In this document: one piece after another, positions 2,626 to 61,683 of the stretch
Layout of the letters: each line of letters opens with the position of its first letter
Numbering within the stretch: position 1 is the first letter of the stretch
Source: Tumebacillus algifaecis
Lineage (GTDB): Bacteria > Bacillota > Bacilli > Tumebacillales > Tumebacillaceae
Direction of reading: 5' to 3'
Length of the DNA: 64,000 nt
Assembly (NCBI RefSeq): GCF_002243515.1
Contig: NZ_CP022657.1
Location: 1,789,001-1,853,000 of the forward strand
Notes under the pieces: model-generated
The model's database searches: none
Told to the model about the DNA's origin: nothing
Seen by the model: the letters and a program-made list of their open reading frames with translations, nothing else
Translations under genes and position numbers: made by a program

Positions 2626-3945
2626 TTGAGCACCAGAGAATCAACAGCTATGCAACAGCCTCGCGGGGCTCTGATGTGGCTGCAAAGTTTGCAGTGGATG
2701 GTATTTTTCTTAGCGAATACGATCGCCGTGCCGATCGTCGTAGGTGCCGCCTTTGATCTGCCAGCGGCAGATATCTCGTCATTCGTTCAAAGGATGCTGT
2801 TGGCGACGGGGATCGCGACATTGATTCAAATCTTTGTCGGCCATCGCTTGCCACTGATCGAAGGGTCGGCTGGTATGTGGTGGGCGCTCTTTTTGATCAT
2901 GGGCGCAATGGCAGTGCCAGGTGAAAAGGGTCTGGTCCTGCAACAATTGGAGATGGGTTTGATGGTCTCTGGGGTGGTGCTCATCATCTTGAGCCTGCTT
3001 CCGATCATAGGCAGGGTGCGGGAGCTGTTTACACCGATTGTCACAGGTGTCTATCTCGTGCTGCTCTGTCTCTCGCTAAGCGGCCCTTTCTTTAAAGGGA
3101 TGCTCGGCGTGTCTCGGTTTGGTCAGATCGATTGGCGTTTGGCATTGCTCTCCTTGCTGGTCATCGTCACTGTACTGACGATCTCACTAAAAGCCAAAGG
3201 GATTCTGCGCAGCATGGGGCCGTTACTCGGGATCATGCTAGGCTGGATTTTGTTTACGCTGATCGGCTTTGGTGAGAAAGAAGCGTTGGCCGATGCTGGA
3301 GCGTCGTGGTTTGCATTTCCGGAGTTCTTCGCATGGGGGGAGCCAGTGTGGGATTTTGGCGTGGTGCTGACTTCGGTGCTGACCGGGGTGGTCTTGATTT
3401 CCAATGTGATTGCGTCCATCGTTGTGATCGGCAACACGCTGGGCATTGAACCGGATGCGGCAACCTATCGCAGAGGTGTGTTTGGCAATGGGGTCAGTTC
3501 GTTGATGTCGGGCCCGTTTTCGATTGTTGGACTGGTGCCGCTCTCGGTGTCGGCCGGATTTATGATGACCACAGGACTGCGGGCACGCATGCCCTTTGTG
3601 CTCGGTGCTGTGTTGGTCGCGGCGAGTGGACTGTTTCCGATCGTGGGGCAATTTTTCGCAACGTTGCCATACGAAGTGGCCTATGCTGCGCTGTTTACAC
3701 CGTTTTGTCAGATGATCGGTTTTGGTGTGCGCGACCTGATGGGGGTGGAAGGAAACAACCGCAACCTGCTCGTGATCGGAATTTCGATCATGGTCGGTGT
3801 CGGTGTGATGTTTCTGCCGCCGGACAGTTTAAGCTCGCTGGCACCGTGGCTGCGCAACATCGTCGCCAACGGCCTGTTGGTTGGGCTGATCGTCTGCTTG
3901 CTACTGGAGCATGCCATCTTTCGAAAAGGAAAAAGCGACTCCTAG
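2626..3945 (+). CDS. NCS2-family nucleobase (uracil/xanthine-type) permease
   Basis: A 439-residue integral membrane protein with about 12 to 14 hydrophobic segments. The N-terminal LQSLQWMVFFLANTIAVPIV and VGHRLPLIEGSAGMWWA stretches are typical of the NCS2 (uracil/xanthine/guanine) proton symporter family. It starts at a TTG with gaggaggg ten bases upstream; an ATG at 2650 is an alternative. The exact substrate cannot be read from sequence. I see no purine riboswitch. Its last 245 bases are duplicated 624 bases downstream at 4325-4569, next to the small-peptide array. Confidence 0.85.
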   Translation: MSTRESTAMQQPRGALMWLQSLQWMVFFLANTIAVPIVVGAAFDLPAADISSFVQRMLLATGIATLIQIFVGHRLPLIEGSAGMWWALFLIMGAMAVPGEKGLVLQQLEMGLMVSGVVLIILSLLPIIGRVRELFTPIVTGVYLVLLCLSLSGPFFKGMLGVSRFGQIDWRLALLSLLVIVTVLTISLKAKGILRSMGPLLGIMLGWILFTLIGFGEKEALADAGASWFAFPEFFAWGEPVWDFGVVLTSVLTGVVLISNVIASIVVIGNTLGIEPDAATYRRGVFGNGVSSLMSGPFSIVGLVPLSVSAGFMMTTGLRARMPFVLGAVLVAASGLFPIVGQFFATLPYEVAYAALFTPFCQMIGFGVRDLMGVEGNNRNLLVIGISIMVGVGVMFLPPDSLSSLAPWLRNIVANGLLVGLIVCLLLEHAIFRKGKSDS

Positions 3946-3960
3946 GGGAGCCGCTTTTTT
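3930..3960. terminator. Bidirectional terminator shared by the permease and small-peptide gene A
   Basis: The hairpin aaagcgactcc / ggagccgcttt has A-rich and T-rich flanks on both sides, so it can stop transcripts from the permease (+) and from the peptide gene at 3966-4076 (-). Confidence 0.8.
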
Positions 3961-3965
3961 GTTAC

Positions 3966-4076
3966 TTAAATCAGGGTACACACGAATCCGCAAGAATCAC
4001 CGTTTGTTGAAGTACGGATCAGTGAAGGAGCATCAGTTTGCAATACTTGCACATCAAGATCGAAGATCTCTTCCAT
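3966..4076 (-). CDS. Lanthipeptide-like precursor peptide A (type 1 core)
   Basis: 36 residues, preceded by a strong RBS (aaaggagggtatt) and its own sigma-A promoter. The leader begins MEEIFDLDVQVLQT; the FDLDVQV box resembles the FNLD box that class I lanthipeptide leaders use to bind the LanB dehydratase. The C-terminal core is Ser/Thr-rich and ends DSCGFVCTLI, giving hydroxy residues next to two cysteines, as needed for thioether rings. Too short for ordinary gene callers. The peptide family is inferred from these features; no modification enzyme is recognised in the window, so the chemistry is unproven. Confidence 0.72.
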   Translation of the reverse strand: MEEIFDLDVQVLQTDAPSLIRTSTNGDSCGFVCTLI

Positions 4077-4122
4077 TAAGAATACCCTCCTTTCCTAGGT
4101 AATTAGTAATTTTATATAATAA

Positions 4123-4151
4123 AGTATAATTCATAGTAGAATTTTTGTCAA
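4123..4151 (-). promoter_or_regulatory. Sigma-A promoter of peptide gene A
   Basis: On the minus strand a TTGACA -35 box (4146-4151) is followed after 17 bases by TATACT (4123-4128). The sequence is nearly the same before genes C and I. Confidence 0.82.
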
Positions 4152-4169
4152 ATGAAATATTTGTTTTAT

Positions 4170-4208
4170 AAAAAAGAATCGACTAGTAAAATAGAGCCGC
4201 TTCTTTTT
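4170..4208 (-). terminator. Decayed terminator hairpin after broken gene B
   Basis: Imperfect hairpin (gaatcgact / agagccgcttc) with A/T flanks, matching the hairpins after the other array genes but with mismatches in the stem. Confidence 0.55.
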
Positions 4209-4213
4209 GTTAC

Positions 4214-4327
4214 TTAGTATTCATCCAGGTGGCAGATGAATGCGCAAGAACCAACTGCTGTACGGGCTGTGATTGCTTAGGTGGTCACATGCAACACTTG
4301 TACATCAAGATCAAAGATCTGTCCCAT
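4214..4327 (-). pseudogene. Broken lanthipeptide-like precursor B (type 2)
   Basis: Reads MGQIFDLDVQVLHVTT, then an in-frame TAA where intact copies have GAA (Glu), then AITARTAVGSCAFICHLDEY and a stop. The region before its ATG is not the array RBS but the copied 3' part of the permease gene, so it has lost its translation signal too. It is the downstream end of the first unit of a tandem duplication whose second unit ends in the intact gene D. Confidence 0.8.
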
Positions 4328-4569
4328 TTTGTCAGATGATCGGCTTTGGTGTGCGCGACCTGATGGGGGTGGAAGGAAACAACCGCAACCTGCTCGTGAT
4401 CGGAATTTCGATCATGGTCGGTGTCGGTATGATGTTTCTTCCGCCGGACAGTTTAGGCTCGCTGGCACCGTGGTTGCGCAACATCGTCGCCAACGGCCTG
4501 TTGGTTGGGCTGATCGTCTGTTTGCTGCTGGAGCATGTCATCTTTCGAAAAGGAAAAAGCGACTCCTAA
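4325..4569 (+). pseudogene. Duplicated 3' fragment of the NCS2 permease
   Basis: About 245 bases repeat the permease end (3701-3945) with only around nine differences, including the stop and the terminator that follows. It encodes only the last 80 or so residues, lacks a start and RBS, and lies between peptide genes B and C. It marks a tandem duplication with a unit of about 0.63 kb that carried permease 3' end, a type 1 peptide gene and a type 2 peptide gene. Confidence 0.88.
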
Positions 4570-4585
4570 AGGAGCCGCTTTCTTG
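4555..4585. terminator. Terminator after peptide gene C
   Basis: Hairpin aaagcgactcc / ggagccgcttt, the duplicate of the one at 3930-3960. Confidence 0.75.
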
Positions 4586-4589
4586 TTTC

Positions 4590-4706
4590 TTAAACCAGGG
4601 TACACGCGAAACCGCAGGAATCAGCTCTTGATGAAGATGTAGTAACGATCGGTGCAAGAGCAGAAGTTTGCAATACTTGGACGTCAAGATCGAAGATCTC
4701 TTCCAT
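4590..4706 (-). CDS. Lanthipeptide-like precursor peptide C (type 1 core)
   Basis: 38 residues, paralogue of gene A. The leader is MEEIFDLDVQVLQT; the middle is longer and Ser/Thr-rich (APIVTTSSSRA); the core ends DSCGFACTLV. It has a strong RBS and its own promoter. Compared with A, the FDLDVQV box and the DSCGF.CTL end are conserved while the section between them differs in length and sequence, as is usual in families of modified peptides. Confidence 0.72.
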   Translation of the reverse strand: MEEIFDLDVQVLQTSALAPIVTTSSSRADSCGFACTLV

Positions 4707-4753
4707 GATGAATTCCCTCCTTTCCTGTGGTAATTAGTATATTTATATAATAA

Positions 4754-4782
4754 AGTATAATTCACATTAGTGTTTTTGTCAA
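4754..4782 (-). promoter_or_regulatory. Sigma-A promoter of peptide gene C
   Basis: TTGACA at 4777-4782 and TATACT at 4754-4759 on the minus strand, separated by 17 bases; copy of the gene A promoter. Confidence 0.82.
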
Positions 4783-4801
4783 ATATAAGCTAGGTTTGAT
4801 A

Positions 4802-4839
4802 AAAAAGAAGCGACTCGTAAAATAGAGCCGCTTCTTTTT
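4802..4839 (-). terminator. Hairpin terminator after peptide gene D
   Basis: aaaaagaagcgactc pairs with gagccgcttcttttt, with T-tracts on both sides. Confidence 0.7.
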
Positions 4840-4851
4840 GTTACTTAGTAT

Positions 4852-4959
4852 TCATCCAATGTCGCAGACGAATGCGCAAGAACCAACTGCTGTACGGGCT
4901 GCGATTGCTTCGGTGGTTACTTCCAACACTTGTACATCAAGATCAAAGATCTTTTCCAT
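4852..4959 (-). CDS. Lanthipeptide-like precursor peptide D (type 2, shortened tail)
   Basis: 35 residues: leader MEKIFDLDVQVLEVTTEAIA, core RTAVGSCAFVC, then DIG and stop. Compared with the tail of copy B (CHLDEY), copy D has one extra base just after the last cysteine codon, which shifts the frame and shortens the tail. The core and both cysteines are intact. The RBS is strong; there is no promoter of its own, so it probably depends on read-through from the genes upstream on the minus strand. Confidence 0.7.
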   Translation of the reverse strand: MEKIFDLDVQVLEVTTEAIAARTAVGSCAFVCDIG

Positions 4960-5010
4960 TATGATTACCCTCCTTTCCAGTGAATCAGCTGTAAACGAGT
5001 CTTGAAAAAA

Positions 5011-5040
5011 GCGACTCCTGAAATGGAGTCTCTTCTTTTT
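5011..5040 (-). terminator. Hairpin after peptide gene E
   Basis: gcgactcc / ggagtctc with a T-rich flank; weaker than its neighbours. Confidence 0.55.
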
Positions 5041-5041
5041 G

Positions 5042-5164
5042 TTACCTAGTGATCAAATCATCCATGTCGCACACGAATGCGCAAGAACCAACTGCTGTAC
5101 GTGCTGCGATTGCTTCGGTGGTTACTTCCAACACCTGTACATCAAGATCAAAGATCTTTTCCAT
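5042..5164 (-). CDS. Lanthipeptide-like precursor peptide E (type 2)
   Basis: 40 residues. The leader MEKIFDLDVQVLEVTTEAIA is identical to those of F and G; the core is RTAVGSCAFVC and the tail is DMDDLITR. The RBS is aaaggagggtatt. The tail after the second cysteine differs from that of every other copy, while the core is unchanged. Confidence 0.7.
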   Translation of the reverse strand: MEKIFDLDVQVLEVTTEAIAARTAVGSCAFVCDMDDLITR

Positions 5165-5210
5165 TATGAATACCCTCCTTTCCAGTGAATTAGCTGTAAG
5201 CTAGTTTTGA

Positions 5211-5244
5211 AAAAAAGCGACTCCTAAAATAGAGTCGCTTTTTT
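5211..5244 (-). terminator. Hairpin terminator after peptide gene F
   Basis: aaaaagcgactc / gagtcgcttttt, perfect stem with T-tracts. Confidence 0.75.
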
Positions 5245-5249
5245 GTTAC

Positions 5250-5369
5250 TTATTTCAAGAGATCTTCCGGGTAGCACACGAATGCGCAAGAACCAACTGC
5301 TGTACGTGCTGCGATTGCTTCGGTGGTTACTTCCAACACCTGTACATCAAGATCAAAGATCTTTTCCAT
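5250..5369 (-). CDS. Lanthipeptide-like precursor peptide F (type 2)
   Basis: 39 residues: leader MEKIFDLDVQVLEVTTEAIA, core RTAVGSCAFVC, tail YPEDLLK. Nearly identical at DNA level to copy G including flanks, which suggests a recent duplication. The RBS is strong and a terminator hairpin follows 6 bases after the stop. Confidence 0.72.
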   Translation of the reverse strand: MEKIFDLDVQVLEVTTEAIAARTAVGSCAFVCYPEDLLK

Positions 5370-5414
5370 TATGAATACCCTCCTTTCCAGTGAATTAGCT
5401 GTAAGCTAGTTTTG

Positions 5415-5449
5415 AAAAAAAGCGACTCCTAAAATAGAGTCGCTTTTTT
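5415..5449 (-). terminator. Hairpin terminator after peptide gene G
   Basis: Identical in sequence to the hairpin after gene F. Confidence 0.75.
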
Positions 5450-5454
5450 GTTAC

Positions 5455-5577
5455 TTATTTCAAGAGATCTTCCGGGTAGCACACGAATGCGCAAGAACCA
5501 ACTGCTGTCATGTGTCCTGCGATTGCTTCGGTGGTTACTTCCAACACCTGTACATCAAGATCAAAGATCTTTTCCAT
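5455..5577 (-). CDS. Lanthipeptide-like precursor peptide G (type 2)
   Basis: 40 residues. Same leader as F, but the residues before the core read GHM instead of AR, giving GHMTAVGSCAFVCYPEDLLK. The loss of the arginine before TAVGSC is shared only with copy I. If a protease trims next to that arginine, this copy would be processed differently; that is inference. Confidence 0.7.
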   Translation of the reverse strand: MEKIFDLDVQVLEVTTEAIAGHMTAVGSCAFVCYPEDLLK

Positions 5578-5625
5578 TATGAATACCCTCCTTTCCAGTG
5601 AACCAGCTGCAAACTAGTCTTGATC

Positions 5626-5657
5626 AAAAAGCGACTCCGAAAATAGAGTCGCTTTTA
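5626..5657 (-). terminator. Hairpin after peptide gene H
   Basis: aaaaagcgactc / gagtcgctttt with an interrupted T-tract (ttttattg). Confidence 0.65.
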
Positions 5658-5660
5658 TTG

Positions 5661-5780
5661 TTACTTATTTTCAGCATCCGCGTAGCACACGAATGCGCAA
5701 GAACCAACTGCTGTACGGGGTCCGATTACTTTAACGTTTGCTTGCACCACTTGCACATCAAGATCAAAGTTCTGTTCCAT
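5661..5780 (-). CDS. Lanthipeptide-like precursor peptide H (type 2)
   Basis: 39 residues: leader MEQNFDLDVQVVQANVKVIG, core PRTAVGSCAFVC, tail YADAENK. H and I share a leader that differs from D-G after the FDLDVQV box, yet the TAVGSCAFVC core is unchanged. That is the reverse of most lantibiotic families, where leaders are the conserved part. Confidence 0.72.
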   Translation of the reverse strand: MEQNFDLDVQVVQANVKVIGPRTAVGSCAFVCYADAENK

Positions 5781-5827
5781 TACAAATTACCTCCTTTCCA
5801 GTGACTCGGCTGTAAACCAGTCTTGAT

Positions 5828-5859
5828 AAAAAAACGACTTCTAAAATAGAGTCGCTTTG
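5828..5859 (-). terminator. Hairpin after peptide gene I
   Basis: aacgacttc / gagtcgctttg, imperfect, with a T-tract broken by G; probably leaky. Confidence 0.55.
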
Positions 5860-5866
5860 TTGTTAC

Positions 5867-5986
5867 TTATTTTACAACAGCATCCGGGTAGCACACGAAT
5901 GCGCAAGAACCAACTGCTGTCATGGGTCCGATTACTTTGAGGTTTGCTTGCAACACTTGCACATCGAGATCAAAGTTCTGTTCCAT
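5867..5986 (-). CDS. Lanthipeptide-like precursor peptide I (type 2, first in the array)
   Basis: 39 residues: leader MEQNFDLDVQVLQANLKVIG, core PMTAVGSCAFVC, tail YPDAVVK. It is the promoter-proximal gene, directly behind a near-consensus sigma-A promoter, with the RBS aaaggaggtaat. Read-through past the weak hairpin behind it would reach H, G, F, E and D in that order. Confidence 0.73.
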   Translation of the reverse strand: MEQNFDLDVQVLQANLKVIGPMTAVGSCAFVCYPDAVVK

Positions 5987-6033: not shown

Positions 6034-6062
6034 AGTATAATTCATATTAGAAATTCTGTCAA
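6034..6062 (-). promoter_or_regulatory. Sigma-A promoter of the peptide array (gene I)
   Basis: Minus-strand TTGACA (6057-6062) and TATACT (6034-6039) separated by exactly 17 bases. The -35 box is a perfect consensus match, so strong vegetative expression is plausible. Confidence 0.85.
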
Positions 6063-9197: not shown

Positions 9198-10226
9198 TTG
9201 GCAAAAGAAAAAGAGTTGACATATGGACTGGAAGAGTTCGCCCCCGGCATCGATCTGGAGGATGCTTACGGGTTGAAGATTCTCGATGTCAAAGCGGTGC
9301 GCGCCGTTGTGAAAGTCGAAACGGACCGCGGTACTTTTGCTTTGAAAAAAGTGAGTCACAAGCCGGAGAAATTGCAGTTTATGTATGAAGCGCAGGAGCA
9401 TCTCTGGAACAATGGATTCCAAAAATTGCCGCGCTTTGTGAAGACACAAGATGGCCGTCCATTTCTGGAACTGAAAGACGGTCTGATCTTCCTCAACAAT
9501 TGGATCGACGGCAAAGAGAGCAACGTCAATGACACGGAACAATTGATCCAGATCGTGCGTCTGCAGGCCGATTTGCATCGCGCATCGCGTGGCTTCACTC
9601 CGAGCGTCGAAGCGCACATCAAAACGCGTTGGGCCGGATGGATCGAACGGTATGAAGGACAAATGGACGACATCGAAAGCATCTATCTGCGCTTTAAGGA
9701 CCAAGAGCCGCAAAATGAGCTGGAAGCGACTTTCAAAGCGACGATCGAACCGATGCGTGACATGGCAAAGACGGGGGTCGCTCTGCTCAAAGCGTCACCG
9801 TATCTGGATGTCCTGCGCCGGGAGCGGAACTTGCGCGGTTTTGTGCACGGCGATTTCACGTATCACAATTTCATTCGCACACCGGACGGCGACATGCAGG
9901 TGATCGATTTTGACTATTGCTCCCATGAGTTGAGAGTCCATGATTTTGCCCGCTTTATGCGCAAGATGCTGCGTCGGACCGACTGGTCGGTGGAGATGGG
10001 CAATCTGATTCTCAACACCTACCACGAAATCGATCCGCTGTATGAAGATGAATTGCAGGTGCTGCGGGCCGTACTGTTCTTCCCACAACGCTACTGGCGG
10101 GCGGTGGAGCGAGGCTTCCTCTCCCATCGTTATACCCCAGAAGGTTCGATCAAGAAAATGCGGCAGGAAGTTGCTCGGCTGGACAACTGGCAGCGTTATC
10201 TTGACGACTTTCCGACCCGACTCTAA
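9198..10226 (+). CDS. CotS-family spore coat kinase-like protein (catalytic motif intact)
   Basis: 342 residues of the CotS/YsxE/YutH group, which has an aminoglycoside-phosphotransferase-like fold and sits in the spore coat. The Brenner-type catalytic loop is intact (VHGDFTYHNF) and so is the metal-binding IDFDYC. The N-terminal lobe has LDVKAVRAVVKVETDRGTFA and a lysine-containing LKKV strand. The start is TTG at 9198 with gaggaggg ten bases upstream. First gene of a coat cluster, with another CotS-like gene 21 bases downstream. The substrate is unknown for the family. Confidence 0.88.
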   Translation: MAKEKELTYGLEEFAPGIDLEDAYGLKILDVKAVRAVVKVETDRGTFALKKVSHKPEKLQFMYEAQEHLWNNGFQKLPRFVKTQDGRPFLELKDGLIFLNNWIDGKESNVNDTEQLIQIVRLQADLHRASRGFTPSVEAHIKTRWAGWIERYEGQMDDIESIYLRFKDQEPQNELEATFKATIEPMRDMAKTGVALLKASPYLDVLRRERNLRGFVHGDFTYHNFIRTPDGDMQVIDFDYCSHELRVHDFARFMRKMLRRTDWSVEMGNLILNTYHEIDPLYEDELQVLRAVLFFPQRYWRAVERGFLSHRYTPEGSIKKMRQEVARLDNWQRYLDDFPTRL

Positions 10227-59277: not shown

Positions 59278-61683
59278 CTAGTCCTCGATTGGGTCTACAA
59301 AAGTTGTTCGCGGCTCTTCAGTCAGCATTCCTGTGGTGTTGATCGCACTCGGATTGTAGTACGCCACTTGGTCGATCGTATAGCCATATGCGGTCACCGA
59401 ACCGTCACTGTGTAAAACTGCCGATGCTTCATCGCCATCCACAACCACCCAAAAGCCAGCTAATGTACCGCTGTAGGTGTAGAGAGTCAGGTCATTTTTG
59501 TCACGGATTTGCACGTAGTCATACGTTTGTTCCGTTTCAAAACGAGAGAAGTGCAGGCCGACTTTTTGTGCTCCAGGCTTTCGATAGGTGTGCTGATAGC
59601 GGTTATTATAGTTGACTGGGTATGGATGCGGTGTGTCCATTTGGAGGGTCTCATAGAACCATTTGTTGGTCGTCGTCGTTGGGAACGTCGCCTTCAGCGT
59701 GTAGACAGAAGTGGCGCTGTGTGCCCCGTTATAACCGACAACTTTAATATAGTAGGAGGCACCAGCCAGCCCGTTAAACATCACCGTCTCTGGTGCATTG
59801 CCGCGATTGGTCGATTGCCCGATCAGATTCGAATTGGCATCATATACAGCAAGATCGTAGTCGAACGCCATGTTGTTCATCAAAACGGTCACGCTACCTG
59901 CCGTGCTCGGGGTGAACTTGAACCAATCGACATCGTCGGCCGATGTGATCCGTCCATTGTAGGTGGTATCGGAGATCACCGGCTCGTATGCCGTTTCCAG
60001 AGTGTTGTTCGGTTCAAATGGGTCGCCGAGCGAATCATTCACGCCCACGCTCTCCCACGCATTCACGACAGCAGTCACTTCTGGGGAACTCGCTCCGTAC
60101 AGATCGATCGCAGCTTGGCGAGTCGCATTGCGCGCATCGATGAACAGCGATTTAGGGGTTAAATATTGGGTCAGTGCCCGGTACCACACTTTGCCCGCCT
60201 TGTGTTGAGTGATGCCTGGCGCGGTGACAAAGTTGTAGAATGCTTTGTTGGGAATGCCAGAGTTGGTATGGACACCACCGTTGTCAGCCGACGTGTACAC
60301 ATAATTGGACATGTGATCAGGTTGGTCGAACAGGCTGGGATTGGCCAGTGATCGCATCGCGTCACCTGCGATGGTTGGCGTATAGATCGAATCTCCGATC
60401 AGCCAGTTGTTGTTCGGCTTATTTTCGATCAATTCCCCGAACACGTCGGAGAATGACTCATTCAAAGATCCCGGCTGGTCTTGATAGATCAGCCCGGCCG
60501 TCTTTGCGGTGACTGCGTGGGTCAACTCGTGGGCGACAACATCGAGAGCCCCAGAGAAAGCGAGATAGTTGGTGCCGTCACCGTCTCCGTAAACCATCTG
60601 TGTACCGTTCCAAAATGCATTGTTGTAGTTCGTACTGTAGTGAACAGACGACTTGATCGTCGCCCCTTTGTTATCGAACGAGTTGCGACCATGTACCGAA
60701 TAATAGTAGTCGTACACCAGCCCCGCATAAAAATGGGCATCGACGGCCGATTTGTCGGTCCAGATGTTGTCTGTACTCGAGATCAGCGTTCCGGGCAGTG
60801 ACAGGCTGTGAGCTGTCGAGTAAGTCTCGATTTTTCCGCCCATAGCAAACATGGGCTTGCTCAGGTCGCTCATGAAATAGAGCCCTGTCGCAGATTCGAT
60901 GTTCAATGATTTGGTATCATCCAAAACGCCGATCCCCGTGCCGATCACAGACGCAGTTTGCAATTTAGAGATCGTGTTTAGAATCGAACCGTCATGTGCG
61001 TCGATCAGCAGATCTGCATAGACCGGAGTATCGTCGAACGCCGAAAGGGTCACCAGATAGGCCAGATGGTAGTTGCTGGGGCTCGCTTCATACACGGTTA
61101 ATGTGGACTCTTGCACATCGAACACTGCTGTTTCGCTCAGTTTGAGCGACTTTTTTGCAACGGATAGCGCATCAGCTTTGGAGAGTGTAGGTTTAACATT
61201 GACGCCCTTGGTTTTTAGCAGCGGATCATAGTAGCCGTTGACAGAGGTCACGGCACCAGTTGTATTGGTATGCACGATCAACTCGTTGCCAAAGACGGGG
61301 ACACCTCGGTGTGTTTGACGAAATTTAAACGCTTTACCATGCTGATCGGTGATCTGATCGAACAGCATCATTTCCATTCTGGCAGACTCGATCTGGAACA
61401 GGTCACGGTTTTCTTCCAGGACAGAAATCGCATCGGTTGACGTGCGCACTTCTCGTGAAGACAGCCTGCCAGACACAAAGTTTGGGATGTTCTTTTCGGT
61501 GTTCCAAGAAATTTTGTCATTCTTTTTTGAATTTTCATATCGAGAGAAATTTGCGAAATCTTGCATCTCGGCCGCTTTTGATGGAAGTGTTTGTGCCGCA
61601 GAGACCGGAACGGAACTCAGCGCAGCCATGGACAACACGAGGGCGGACGCAATGGAAAGGGTTGAAATCTGGTTCTCTTTCAT
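59278..61683 (-). CDS. Secreted M4 (thermolysin-family) neutral metalloprotease with PPC and C-terminal beta domain
   Basis: 801 residues. Signal peptide (about 1-30, SVPVSAA), FTP/PepSY propeptide (about 60-220), the M4 catalytic domain with H385-E-L-T-H389 and the third ligand in GSLNESFSDVFGE, then a PPC domain (about 555-675; DPFEPNNTLETA, FDYDLAVYD). A CUB-like domain closes the protein (about 680-790; TYDYVQIRDKNDLTLYTY). Digests external protein. Convergent with comG. Confidence 0.95.
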   Translation of the reverse strand: MKENQISTLSIASALVLSMAALSSVPVSAAQTLPSKAAEMQDFANFSRYENSKKNDKISWNTEKNIPNFVSGRLSSREVRTSTDAISVLEENRDLFQIESARMEMMLFDQITDQHGKAFKFRQTHRGVPVFGNELIVHTNTTGAVTSVNGYYDPLLKTKGVNVKPTLSKADALSVAKKSLKLSETAVFDVQESTLTVYEASPSNYHLAYLVTLSAFDDTPVYADLLIDAHDGSILNTISKLQTASVIGTGIGVLDDTKSLNIESATGLYFMSDLSKPMFAMGGKIETYSTAHSLSLPGTLISSTDNIWTDKSAVDAHFYAGLVYDYYYSVHGRNSFDNKGATIKSSVHYSTNYNNAFWNGTQMVYGDGDGTNYLAFSGALDVVAHELTHAVTAKTAGLIYQDQPGSLNESFSDVFGELIENKPNNNWLIGDSIYTPTIAGDAMRSLANPSLFDQPDHMSNYVYTSADNGGVHTNSGIPNKAFYNFVTAPGITQHKAGKVWYRALTQYLTPKSLFIDARNATRQAAIDLYGASSPEVTAVVNAWESVGVNDSLGDPFEPNNTLETAYEPVISDTTYNGRITSADDVDWFKFTPSTAGSVTVLMNNMAFDYDLAVYDANSNLIGQSTNRGNAPETVMFNGLAGASYYIKVVGYNGAHSATSVYTLKATFPTTTTNKWFYETLQMDTPHPYPVNYNNRYQHTYRKPGAQKVGLHFSRFETEQTYDYVQIRDKNDLTLYTYSGTLAGFWVVVDGDEASAVLHSDGSVTAYGYTIDQVAYYNPSAINTTGMLTEEPRTTFVDPIED

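What the first reader, a model, noticed from the sequence alone, without database searches (positions are those of the whole stretch)
3966..5986. Tandem array of nine orphan lanthipeptide-like precursor genes
Nine head-to-tail minus-strand genes encode 35-40 residue peptides with an FDLDVQV box (like the FNLD box of class I lanthipeptide leaders) and short Ser/Thr/Cys cores (TAVGSCAFVC or DSCGFVCTL). Strong RBSs, near-perfect promoters and coding conservation argue for expression. No LanB, LanC, LanM, radical SAM, YcaO, protease or exporter gene is recognisable in the 64 kb. An array of this size without biosynthetic genes is unusual: the enzymes may act in trans, or the peptides may belong to an undescribed family. 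The lanthipeptide label is inference from leader and core layout.
Basis: partly seen in the sequence, partly recalled or inferred. Interest (0 to 1): 0.88.

Follow-up and report, generated by a model that had tools for sequence, protein, structure and literature searches.

The report
Dispersed class I lanthipeptide precursor array
A bacterium carries a row of eight working tiny genes (and one broken one) for ring-forming peptides; they belong to a set of some two dozen such genes scattered round the chromosome that probably share one distant set of modifying enzymes.

Summary
The array is real: eight intact genes plus one broken copy (not nine intact) on the minus strand at 3966-5986. They match NCBIfam's FDLD class I lanthipeptide family (NF038155), several only near its cut-off. 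No LanB or LanC lies in the window, but the genome has one full-length LanB, an ABC exporter and its only detected LanC together about 300 kb away, next to one or two further FDLD precursors. About 25 FDLD precursors lie in six places in this genome. Six of seven genomes of the family have FDLD precursors; I called 11-23 in each, with a conserved box and divergent Cys/Ser/Thr-rich cores. The seventh has no precursor, LanB or LanC hit. Among 14 genomes of the order, precursors and LanC occur in the same six. Best reading: a genome-dispersed class I system in which one LanB/LanC set probably serves many precursors in trans, like the class II prochlorosins but with other enzymes. A 10-precursor class I cluster in Tumebacillus flagellatus is in print (PMC7268733); my ten searches found no account of genome-wide dispersal. 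Modification, products and function are untested.

The parts
5867..5986 (-). precursor gene 1, 39 aa, core ..TAVGSCAFVC..
   Evidence: ORF and RBS; NF038155 16.9 bits, below the 20-bit cut-off (L019)
5661..5780 (-). precursor gene 2, 39 aa
   Evidence: ORF and RBS; NF038155 17.2 bits, below cut-off (L018)
5455..5577 (-). precursor gene 3, 40 aa
   Evidence: ORF and RBS; NF038155 19.3 bits, just below cut-off (L014)
5250..5369 (-). precursor gene 4, 39 aa
   Evidence: ORF and RBS; NF038155 20.1 bits, over cut-off (L011); 21.3 bits
5042..5164 (-). precursor gene 5, 40 aa
   Evidence: ORF and RBS; NF038155 19.6 bits, over cut-off only with its neighbours in the frame (L012)
4852..4959 (-). precursor gene 6, 35 aa
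   Evidence: ORF and RBS; NF038155 19.6 bits, over cut-off only with its neighbours in the frame (L013)
4590..4706 (-). precursor gene 7, 38 aa, second core type ..DSCGFACTLV
   Evidence: ORF and RBS; NF038155 17.8 bits, below cut-off (L016)
4214..4327 (-). broken precursor copy: in-frame TAA after codon 16, 5' side fused to duplicated permease sequence, no RBS seen
   Evidence: sequence; NF038155 20.5 bits with 1 TAA inside (L009); junction
3966..4076 (-). precursor gene 8, 36 aa, core ..DSCGFVCTLI
   Evidence: ORF and RBS; NF038155 14.0 bits, below cut-off (L026); TIGR04363 20.0 bits against a cut-off of 30
6034..6062 (-). promoter-like TTGACA-17-TATACT before gene 1
   Evidence: 11 of 12
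4754..4782 (-). promoter-like TTGACA-17-TATACT before gene 7
   Evidence: 11 of 12
4123..4151 (-). promoter-like TTGACA-17-TATACT before gene 8
   Evidence: 11 of 12
5416..5449 (-). hairpin plus T-run after gene 3 (near-symmetric, terminator-like)
   Evidence: fold z -6.0; the scan lists this site on the + strand only
5211..5244 (-). hairpin plus T-run after gene 4
   Evidence: fold z -5.2; the scan lists this site on the + strand only
3925..3970 (-). hairpin plus T-run after gene 8 (folded stretch)
   Evidence: fold z -5.3; not listed by the scan
4324..4587 (.). duplicated 3' tail of the neighbouring permease gene (copy of 3700-3963)
   Evidence: 95.5% identity over 264 bases; Xan_ur_permease by Pfam

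Best explanation
The array encodes class I lanthipeptide precursors. The peptides are made from a few strong sigma-A-type promoters; the FDLDVQV box in the leader is recognised by the LanB dehydratase and LanC cyclase encoded about 300 kb away; LanB dehydrates Ser/Thr in the core, LanC joins them to the core Cys residues, and the ABC exporter encoded between lanB and lanC may carry the product out. The same enzyme set probably serves about 25 precursors in six places of the chromosome, so the bacterium makes a small library of ringed peptides. Shown here: the genes, the shared leader, the single full LanB and single detected LanC, the conservation and the co-occurrence. Inferred: recognition in trans, dehydration, cyclisation, export, an unlinked leader protease. 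The biological role is unknown; an antimicrobial or signalling role is a guess.
For: FDLD class I family model hits. One LANC_like protein found in the whole genome at E 0.001, stand-alone, 452 aa; its two solved relatives are 8byk ('Lanthionine synthetase C-like protein') and NisC, with the WCYG and CHG motifs aligned. One full-length LanB with both Pfam dehydratase domains; best solved match 9g04, then 5ehk and NisB; the RxxxRxT, RPD and IHxH segments are invariant in the six LanBs aligned. An FDLD precursor directly upstream of that operon, divergent from it. Across six genomes 111 called precursors: mean identity 0.86 over the 7-residue box against 0.25 over the rest (1500 random pairs). 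The first five box positions were part of my filter; the next two were not, and show Q in 98 and V/I in 111 of 111. No Cys before the box end plus one (0 of 111); with the Cys filter removed, 0 of 95 box ORFs lack Cys after the box. Co-occurrence: FDLD precursors and LanC in the same 6 of 14 genomes of the order; LanB in the same 6 of 7 of the family. Four of the six genomes have exactly one LanC hit, yet 22 of 23, 12 of 19, 6 of 20 and 2 of 11 of their called precursors lie more than 10 kb from it or on another contig.
Against: No chemistry was or could be tested. Five of nine window copies score below the family cut-off. The co-occurrence rests on few, related genomes (perhaps one origin and one loss). 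G005 and G006 have three LanC hits and two or three full LanB each, so enzyme assignment there is open. The genome also holds a split LanB-like/YcaO cluster at 2641-2652 kb. I saw no leader protease or immunity gene next to lanBTC when reading the ORF lists; only some of those ORFs were run against Pfam. The selection evidence is thin: in the seven ortholog pairs compared the first 12 codons hold 4 synonymous and 0 amino-acid changes in all.
Confidence: 0.77

Rival explanations
1. The precursors are modified by the other cluster, the split LanB-like/YcaO/nitroreductase set at 2641-2652 kb, giving azole- or dehydroamino-acid-type peptides rather than lanthipeptides.
For: That cluster exists in this genome, and YcaO enzymes act on Cys/Ser/Thr cores (general knowledge).
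Against: G002 and G004 carry 20 and 11 called FDLD precursors but only one LanB N-domain hit each, the full-length one. An FDLD precursor sits beside the full LanB/LanC, while neither the family model (E up to 10) nor the pattern hits anywhere in 2641-2661 kb. YcaO was not searched for in the relatives.
Confidence: 0.07
2. The remote precursors are decaying leftovers: only those beside lanBTC are matured, and the arrays are non-functional duplicates.
For: One of nine window copies is broken; arrays duplicate and move readily.
Against: Eight of nine copies are open with intact RBSs. Seven hand-picked ortholog pairs of the sister array (five genes; an eighth pair was named but not run) show 0 amino-acid and 4 synonymous changes in the first 12 codons, 13 and 6 after them. 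Promoter-like sites with at most one mismatch stand before 19 of 110 called genes against 0.2 expected from simple base shuffles (one gene at a contig end dropped; array genes are not independent).
Confidence: 0.1
3. The peptides are not RiPPs: short unmodified peptides (signals or disulfide peptides) that happen to share a leader-like box.
For: No product is known; single-Cys cores exist (13 of 111).
Against: Same six of 14 genomes for precursors and LanC, a precursor directly beside lanB, match to a class I lanthipeptide family model.
Confidence: 0.04

Closest known systems
Class I lanthipeptides, FDLD family (NCBIfam NF038155)
   Same: FDLD leader box, short Cys/Ser/Thr core, LanB and stand-alone LanC in the genome
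   Different: Most called precursors of this genome lie hundreds of kilobases from the enzymes, in arrays and singly. In a large survey 62% of class I precursors are the only predicted one in their cluster (PMC7268733, section 6 read)
Tumebacillus flagellatus class I cluster with 10 distinct precursors (PMC7268733)
   Same: Same family of bacteria. It is probably the locus of L138/G002:C11, the only LanC locus found in that genome, where I FDLD precursors within 10 kb of lanBC
   Different: That survey looked at seven genes either side of the LanC-like protein, so remote sites, such as six further called precursors of G002 or the window array, fall outside its search
Prochlorosins / ProcM and SyncM (class II)
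   Same: One enzyme, many precursors with conserved leader and less conserved core (PMC10783134, start of abstract and passages)
   Different: Class II LanM enzyme and Gly-Gly leaders there; here LanB plus LanC and an FDLD box, and no Gly-Gly column in my tabulated positions
Maddinglicin (MadA/MadC, class I; PMC9889658, passages seen)
   Same: FDLD box in the leader; that study made a leader variant with the box changed to AAAA for binding tests with the cyclase. 8byk, the closest solved cyclase, is MadC as far as I recall
   Different: Core with seven cysteines, nisin-like N-terminal rings; its cluster was not compared here

Membership tests
Class I lanthipeptide | F-x-L-D leader box | tested here: met
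   FDLDVQV in all eight intact genes
Class I lanthipeptide | LanB-type dehydratase in the genome | tested here: met
   Full-length LanB at 1494.6-1497.8 kb
Class I lanthipeptide | Stand-alone LanC cyclase in the genome | tested here: met
   Single LANC_like hit, 452 aa
Class I lanthipeptide | Precursor beside its enzymes (usual layout, not part of the chemical definition) | tested here: not met
   Window array about 300 kb away; one precursor, perhaps two, of this genome does lie beside them
Class I lanthipeptide | Dehydration and lanthionine rings in the product | not testable with these tools
   needs co-expression or mass spectrometry
NCBIfam NF038155 FDLD class I lanthipeptide | Score at or over the 20-bit cut-off | tested here: inconclusive
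   Of nine window copies four reach it (one is the broken copy, two only with neighbours in the frame), five do not, at 14.0-19.3 bits
Prochlorosin-type (class II, ProcM) system | LanM synthetase | tested here: not met
   The only LanC-type protein found is stand-alone; LanM model 71 bits against a cut-off of 304
Prochlorosin-type (class II, ProcM) system | One enzyme set acting on many precursors of conserved leader and divergent core | tested here: inconclusive
   Gene content fits; actual promiscuity not tested

The most novel reading that the evidence does not exclude
A natural combinatorial class I lanthipeptide system: one LanB/LanC set matures two dozen precursors scattered over the chromosome, kept diverse by tandem duplication and IS-linked movement of whole arrays; a class I counterpart of the prochlorosins, seen among the genomes examined here only in the Tumebacillus family.
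Probability: 0.6. Interest if true: 0.75.

Novelty: new variant of a known kind. Interest (0 to 1): 0.6.

Why it matters
If the trans reading holds, a class I LanB/LanC pair tolerates dozens of natural cores, which would give a substrate-tolerant tRNA-dependent enzyme set for making peptide libraries; such natural tolerance is known to me mainly from class II. It would also mean that surveys that look only beside the enzymes miss many precursors of such genomes, and it offers a case in which birth, duplication and movement of precursor arrays can be compared between sister species.

Tried and rejected
Nothing found: tblastn of one precursor in the plasmid collection; Pfam on four precursors; genome-contig scan with the single LanB protein (the scan with the LanB alignment gave 13 loci); PADLOC on LanB and one precursor. 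Literature, ten searches: 0 papers; 0 papers. Long lists were cut (20 of 40 papers shown, 20 of 65), and for most papers I saw only the listing with the start of the abstract. Passages were seen of PMC7268733 (plus its section 6), PMC9889658, PMC10783134 and PMC12328550. Only open-licence PubMed Central papers are covered.

Rejected: pattern hits at 275890, 310703 and 1057051 (inside or opposite larger ORFs); the NF038155 hits at 2673232 and 2152929 are not counted as precursors. The hit at 1498155 beside lanB lacks a clear start and RBS and is only a candidate. The 1869906 ORF (FELD box, 47 aa) is counted by the script but weak (15.6 bits; 17.2 bits for its C-terminal 36 aa). One search was a script error, mended. 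In one search one of eight pairs did not run. No structure was predicted: it would not settle trans modification.
Full report
Observation. Eight intact 35-40 aa genes and one broken copy lie head to tail on the minus strand at 3966-5986. Six share the core TAVGSCAFVC, two share DSCGF(V/A)CTL. The broken copy (4214-4327) has an in-frame TAA and sits against a 264-base copy of the 3' end of the neighbouring permease gene (3700-3963 copied at 4324-4587, 95.5% identical), so a block duplication reached into the next gene. Three near-consensus promoters are present on the genes' strand. Hairpins with T-runs follow several genes; three of four folded are strong (z -5.2 to -6.0), one is weak (z -2.0), and the consensus scan lists most of them on the opposite strand only. 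The inner genes of the six-gene run have no promoter of their own in that scan, so they may depend on read-through (inference).

Identity. NCBIfam's FDLD class I lanthipeptide model matches: 1 of 4 peptides over the cut-off, 4 of 9 window copies at or over it. Pfam gives nothing for the four peptides tried. Run at E 10, the model also rang in 6 of 14 control genomes, none over the cut-off; at E 0.05 in one, Deinobacterium chartae, which also has a LanC hit.

Enzymes. The genome (one contig, 4,516,965 bases) has one LANC_like hit and two proteins with a LanB N-domain. The strong one (1064 aa, both dehydratase domains) stands with an ABC exporter, in which Pfam shows no C39 peptidase domain, and the LanC at 1491.5-1497.8 kb; the flanking genes read as NRPS/PKS-type (by eye). 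The weak one belongs to a split LanB-like/YcaO/nitroreductase cluster at 2641-2652 kb. LanB aligns to NisB (4wd9) with RMMSRPT against RSYLRST, RPD against RLD and IHLH against IHVH; these match residues I recall as important in NisB (R83, R87, T89, D121, H961; recalled, from no call). LanC aligns to NisC with WCYG and CHG, the zinc-site motifs as recalled.

Copies. A degenerate FDLD-type pattern gave 26 hits against 0 for the reversed control; 23 of 26 are precursor-like. A script that asked for the box, an RBS, 26-75 aa and a Cys after the box called 23 in this genome at 1013, 1498, 1793-1795, 1870, 3091-3092 and 3731.5-3733 kb. With the broken copy and the candidate at 1498.15 kb that is 25.

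Relatives. In seven genomes of the family (own included), six have NF038155 hits at E 0.05 or better (13, 13, 16, 17, 19, 6) and one, G003, has none; the same six have LanC and LanB hits, G003 neither. Of 14 genomes of the order the same six have both. These genomes are related, so the independent events are few. My script called 111 in all (G000 23, G001 19, G002 20, G004 11, G005 16, G006 22), from fetched stretches around hits, not from whole genomes. Within 10 kb of the main lanBC / farther or on another contig: G000 1/22, G001 7/12, G002 14/6, G004 9/2, G005 1/15, G006 6/16. Of the ten loci outside these three, I searched the genomes of eight (all but L146 and L147): five have one NF038155 hit each, three have none.

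Array history. In G006 the order permease, array, 143-aa gene, pseudouridine synthase is the same as in the window; in G005 the array also lies by the 143-aa gene, with hemL- and hemB-like genes beyond (names in relatives by eye). Yet the peptides of those arrays mostly match this genome's other array at 3731 kb better than the window's (9 of 10 for G006, 8 of 8 for G005). That other array ends at an IS element that cuts its last hairpin, with a different flank on the far side, so it probably moved by an IS-linked rearrangement and a new array grew in the old place (inference). Seven hand-picked pairs of its orthologs (an eighth did not run) show no amino-acid change in the first 12 codons (4 synonymous) and 13 amino-acid and 6 synonymous changes after them; one of the seven has no amino-acid change at all.

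Known and new. The nearest printed case is the T. flagellatus class I cluster with 10 precursors (PMC7268733, passages and section 6 read), found by looking seven genes either side of the LanC-like protein. Prochlorosins (PMC10783134, start of abstract and passages) are the functional parallel in class II. My ten literature searches showed no class I system with precursors dispersed over the genome; they cover open-licence papers only, long lists were cut, and most papers were seen as listings.

Verdict. A real, conserved, probably working part of a dispersed class I lanthipeptide system. Trans modification is well supported by genomics and not shown by experiment.

Noticed in passing
L002, L003 (genome 1478-1508 kb): lanBTC sits between genes that read as NRPS/PKS-type (by eye) and a thioesterase and a penicillin-amidase-type gene (Pfam); a similar setting is seen in G005 and G006 (by eye). 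Whether the pathways interact is unknown.
   Followed up: partly
L061 (genome 2641-2652 kb): Separate cluster with a split LanB-like protein, two Lant_dehydr_C-type proteins, YcaO and two nitroreductase-type proteins: azole/thiopeptide-like.
   Followed up: partly
L059 8064-9470 and about 9500-9530: IS element with transposase pieces (Pfam DUF772 and DDE) at the end of the second precursor array, cutting the last hairpin.
   Followed up: partly
L058 (genome 3091-3092 kb): Two FDLD precursors beside a gene that reads as NRPS-type (by eye); the locus also holds a masked stretch of N.
   Followed up: no
window 59278-61683: Thermolysin-type M4 protease gene; a generic protease that could remove leaders, untested.
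   Followed up: no
G001:C1:680772 and 681006: An FDLD precursor beside a short piece with a weak LanB N-domain match, perhaps a lanB remnant.
   Followed up: no
window 3700-3963 and 4324-4587: Duplicated 3' tail of the permease gene inside the precursor array, 95.5% identical.
   Followed up: yes
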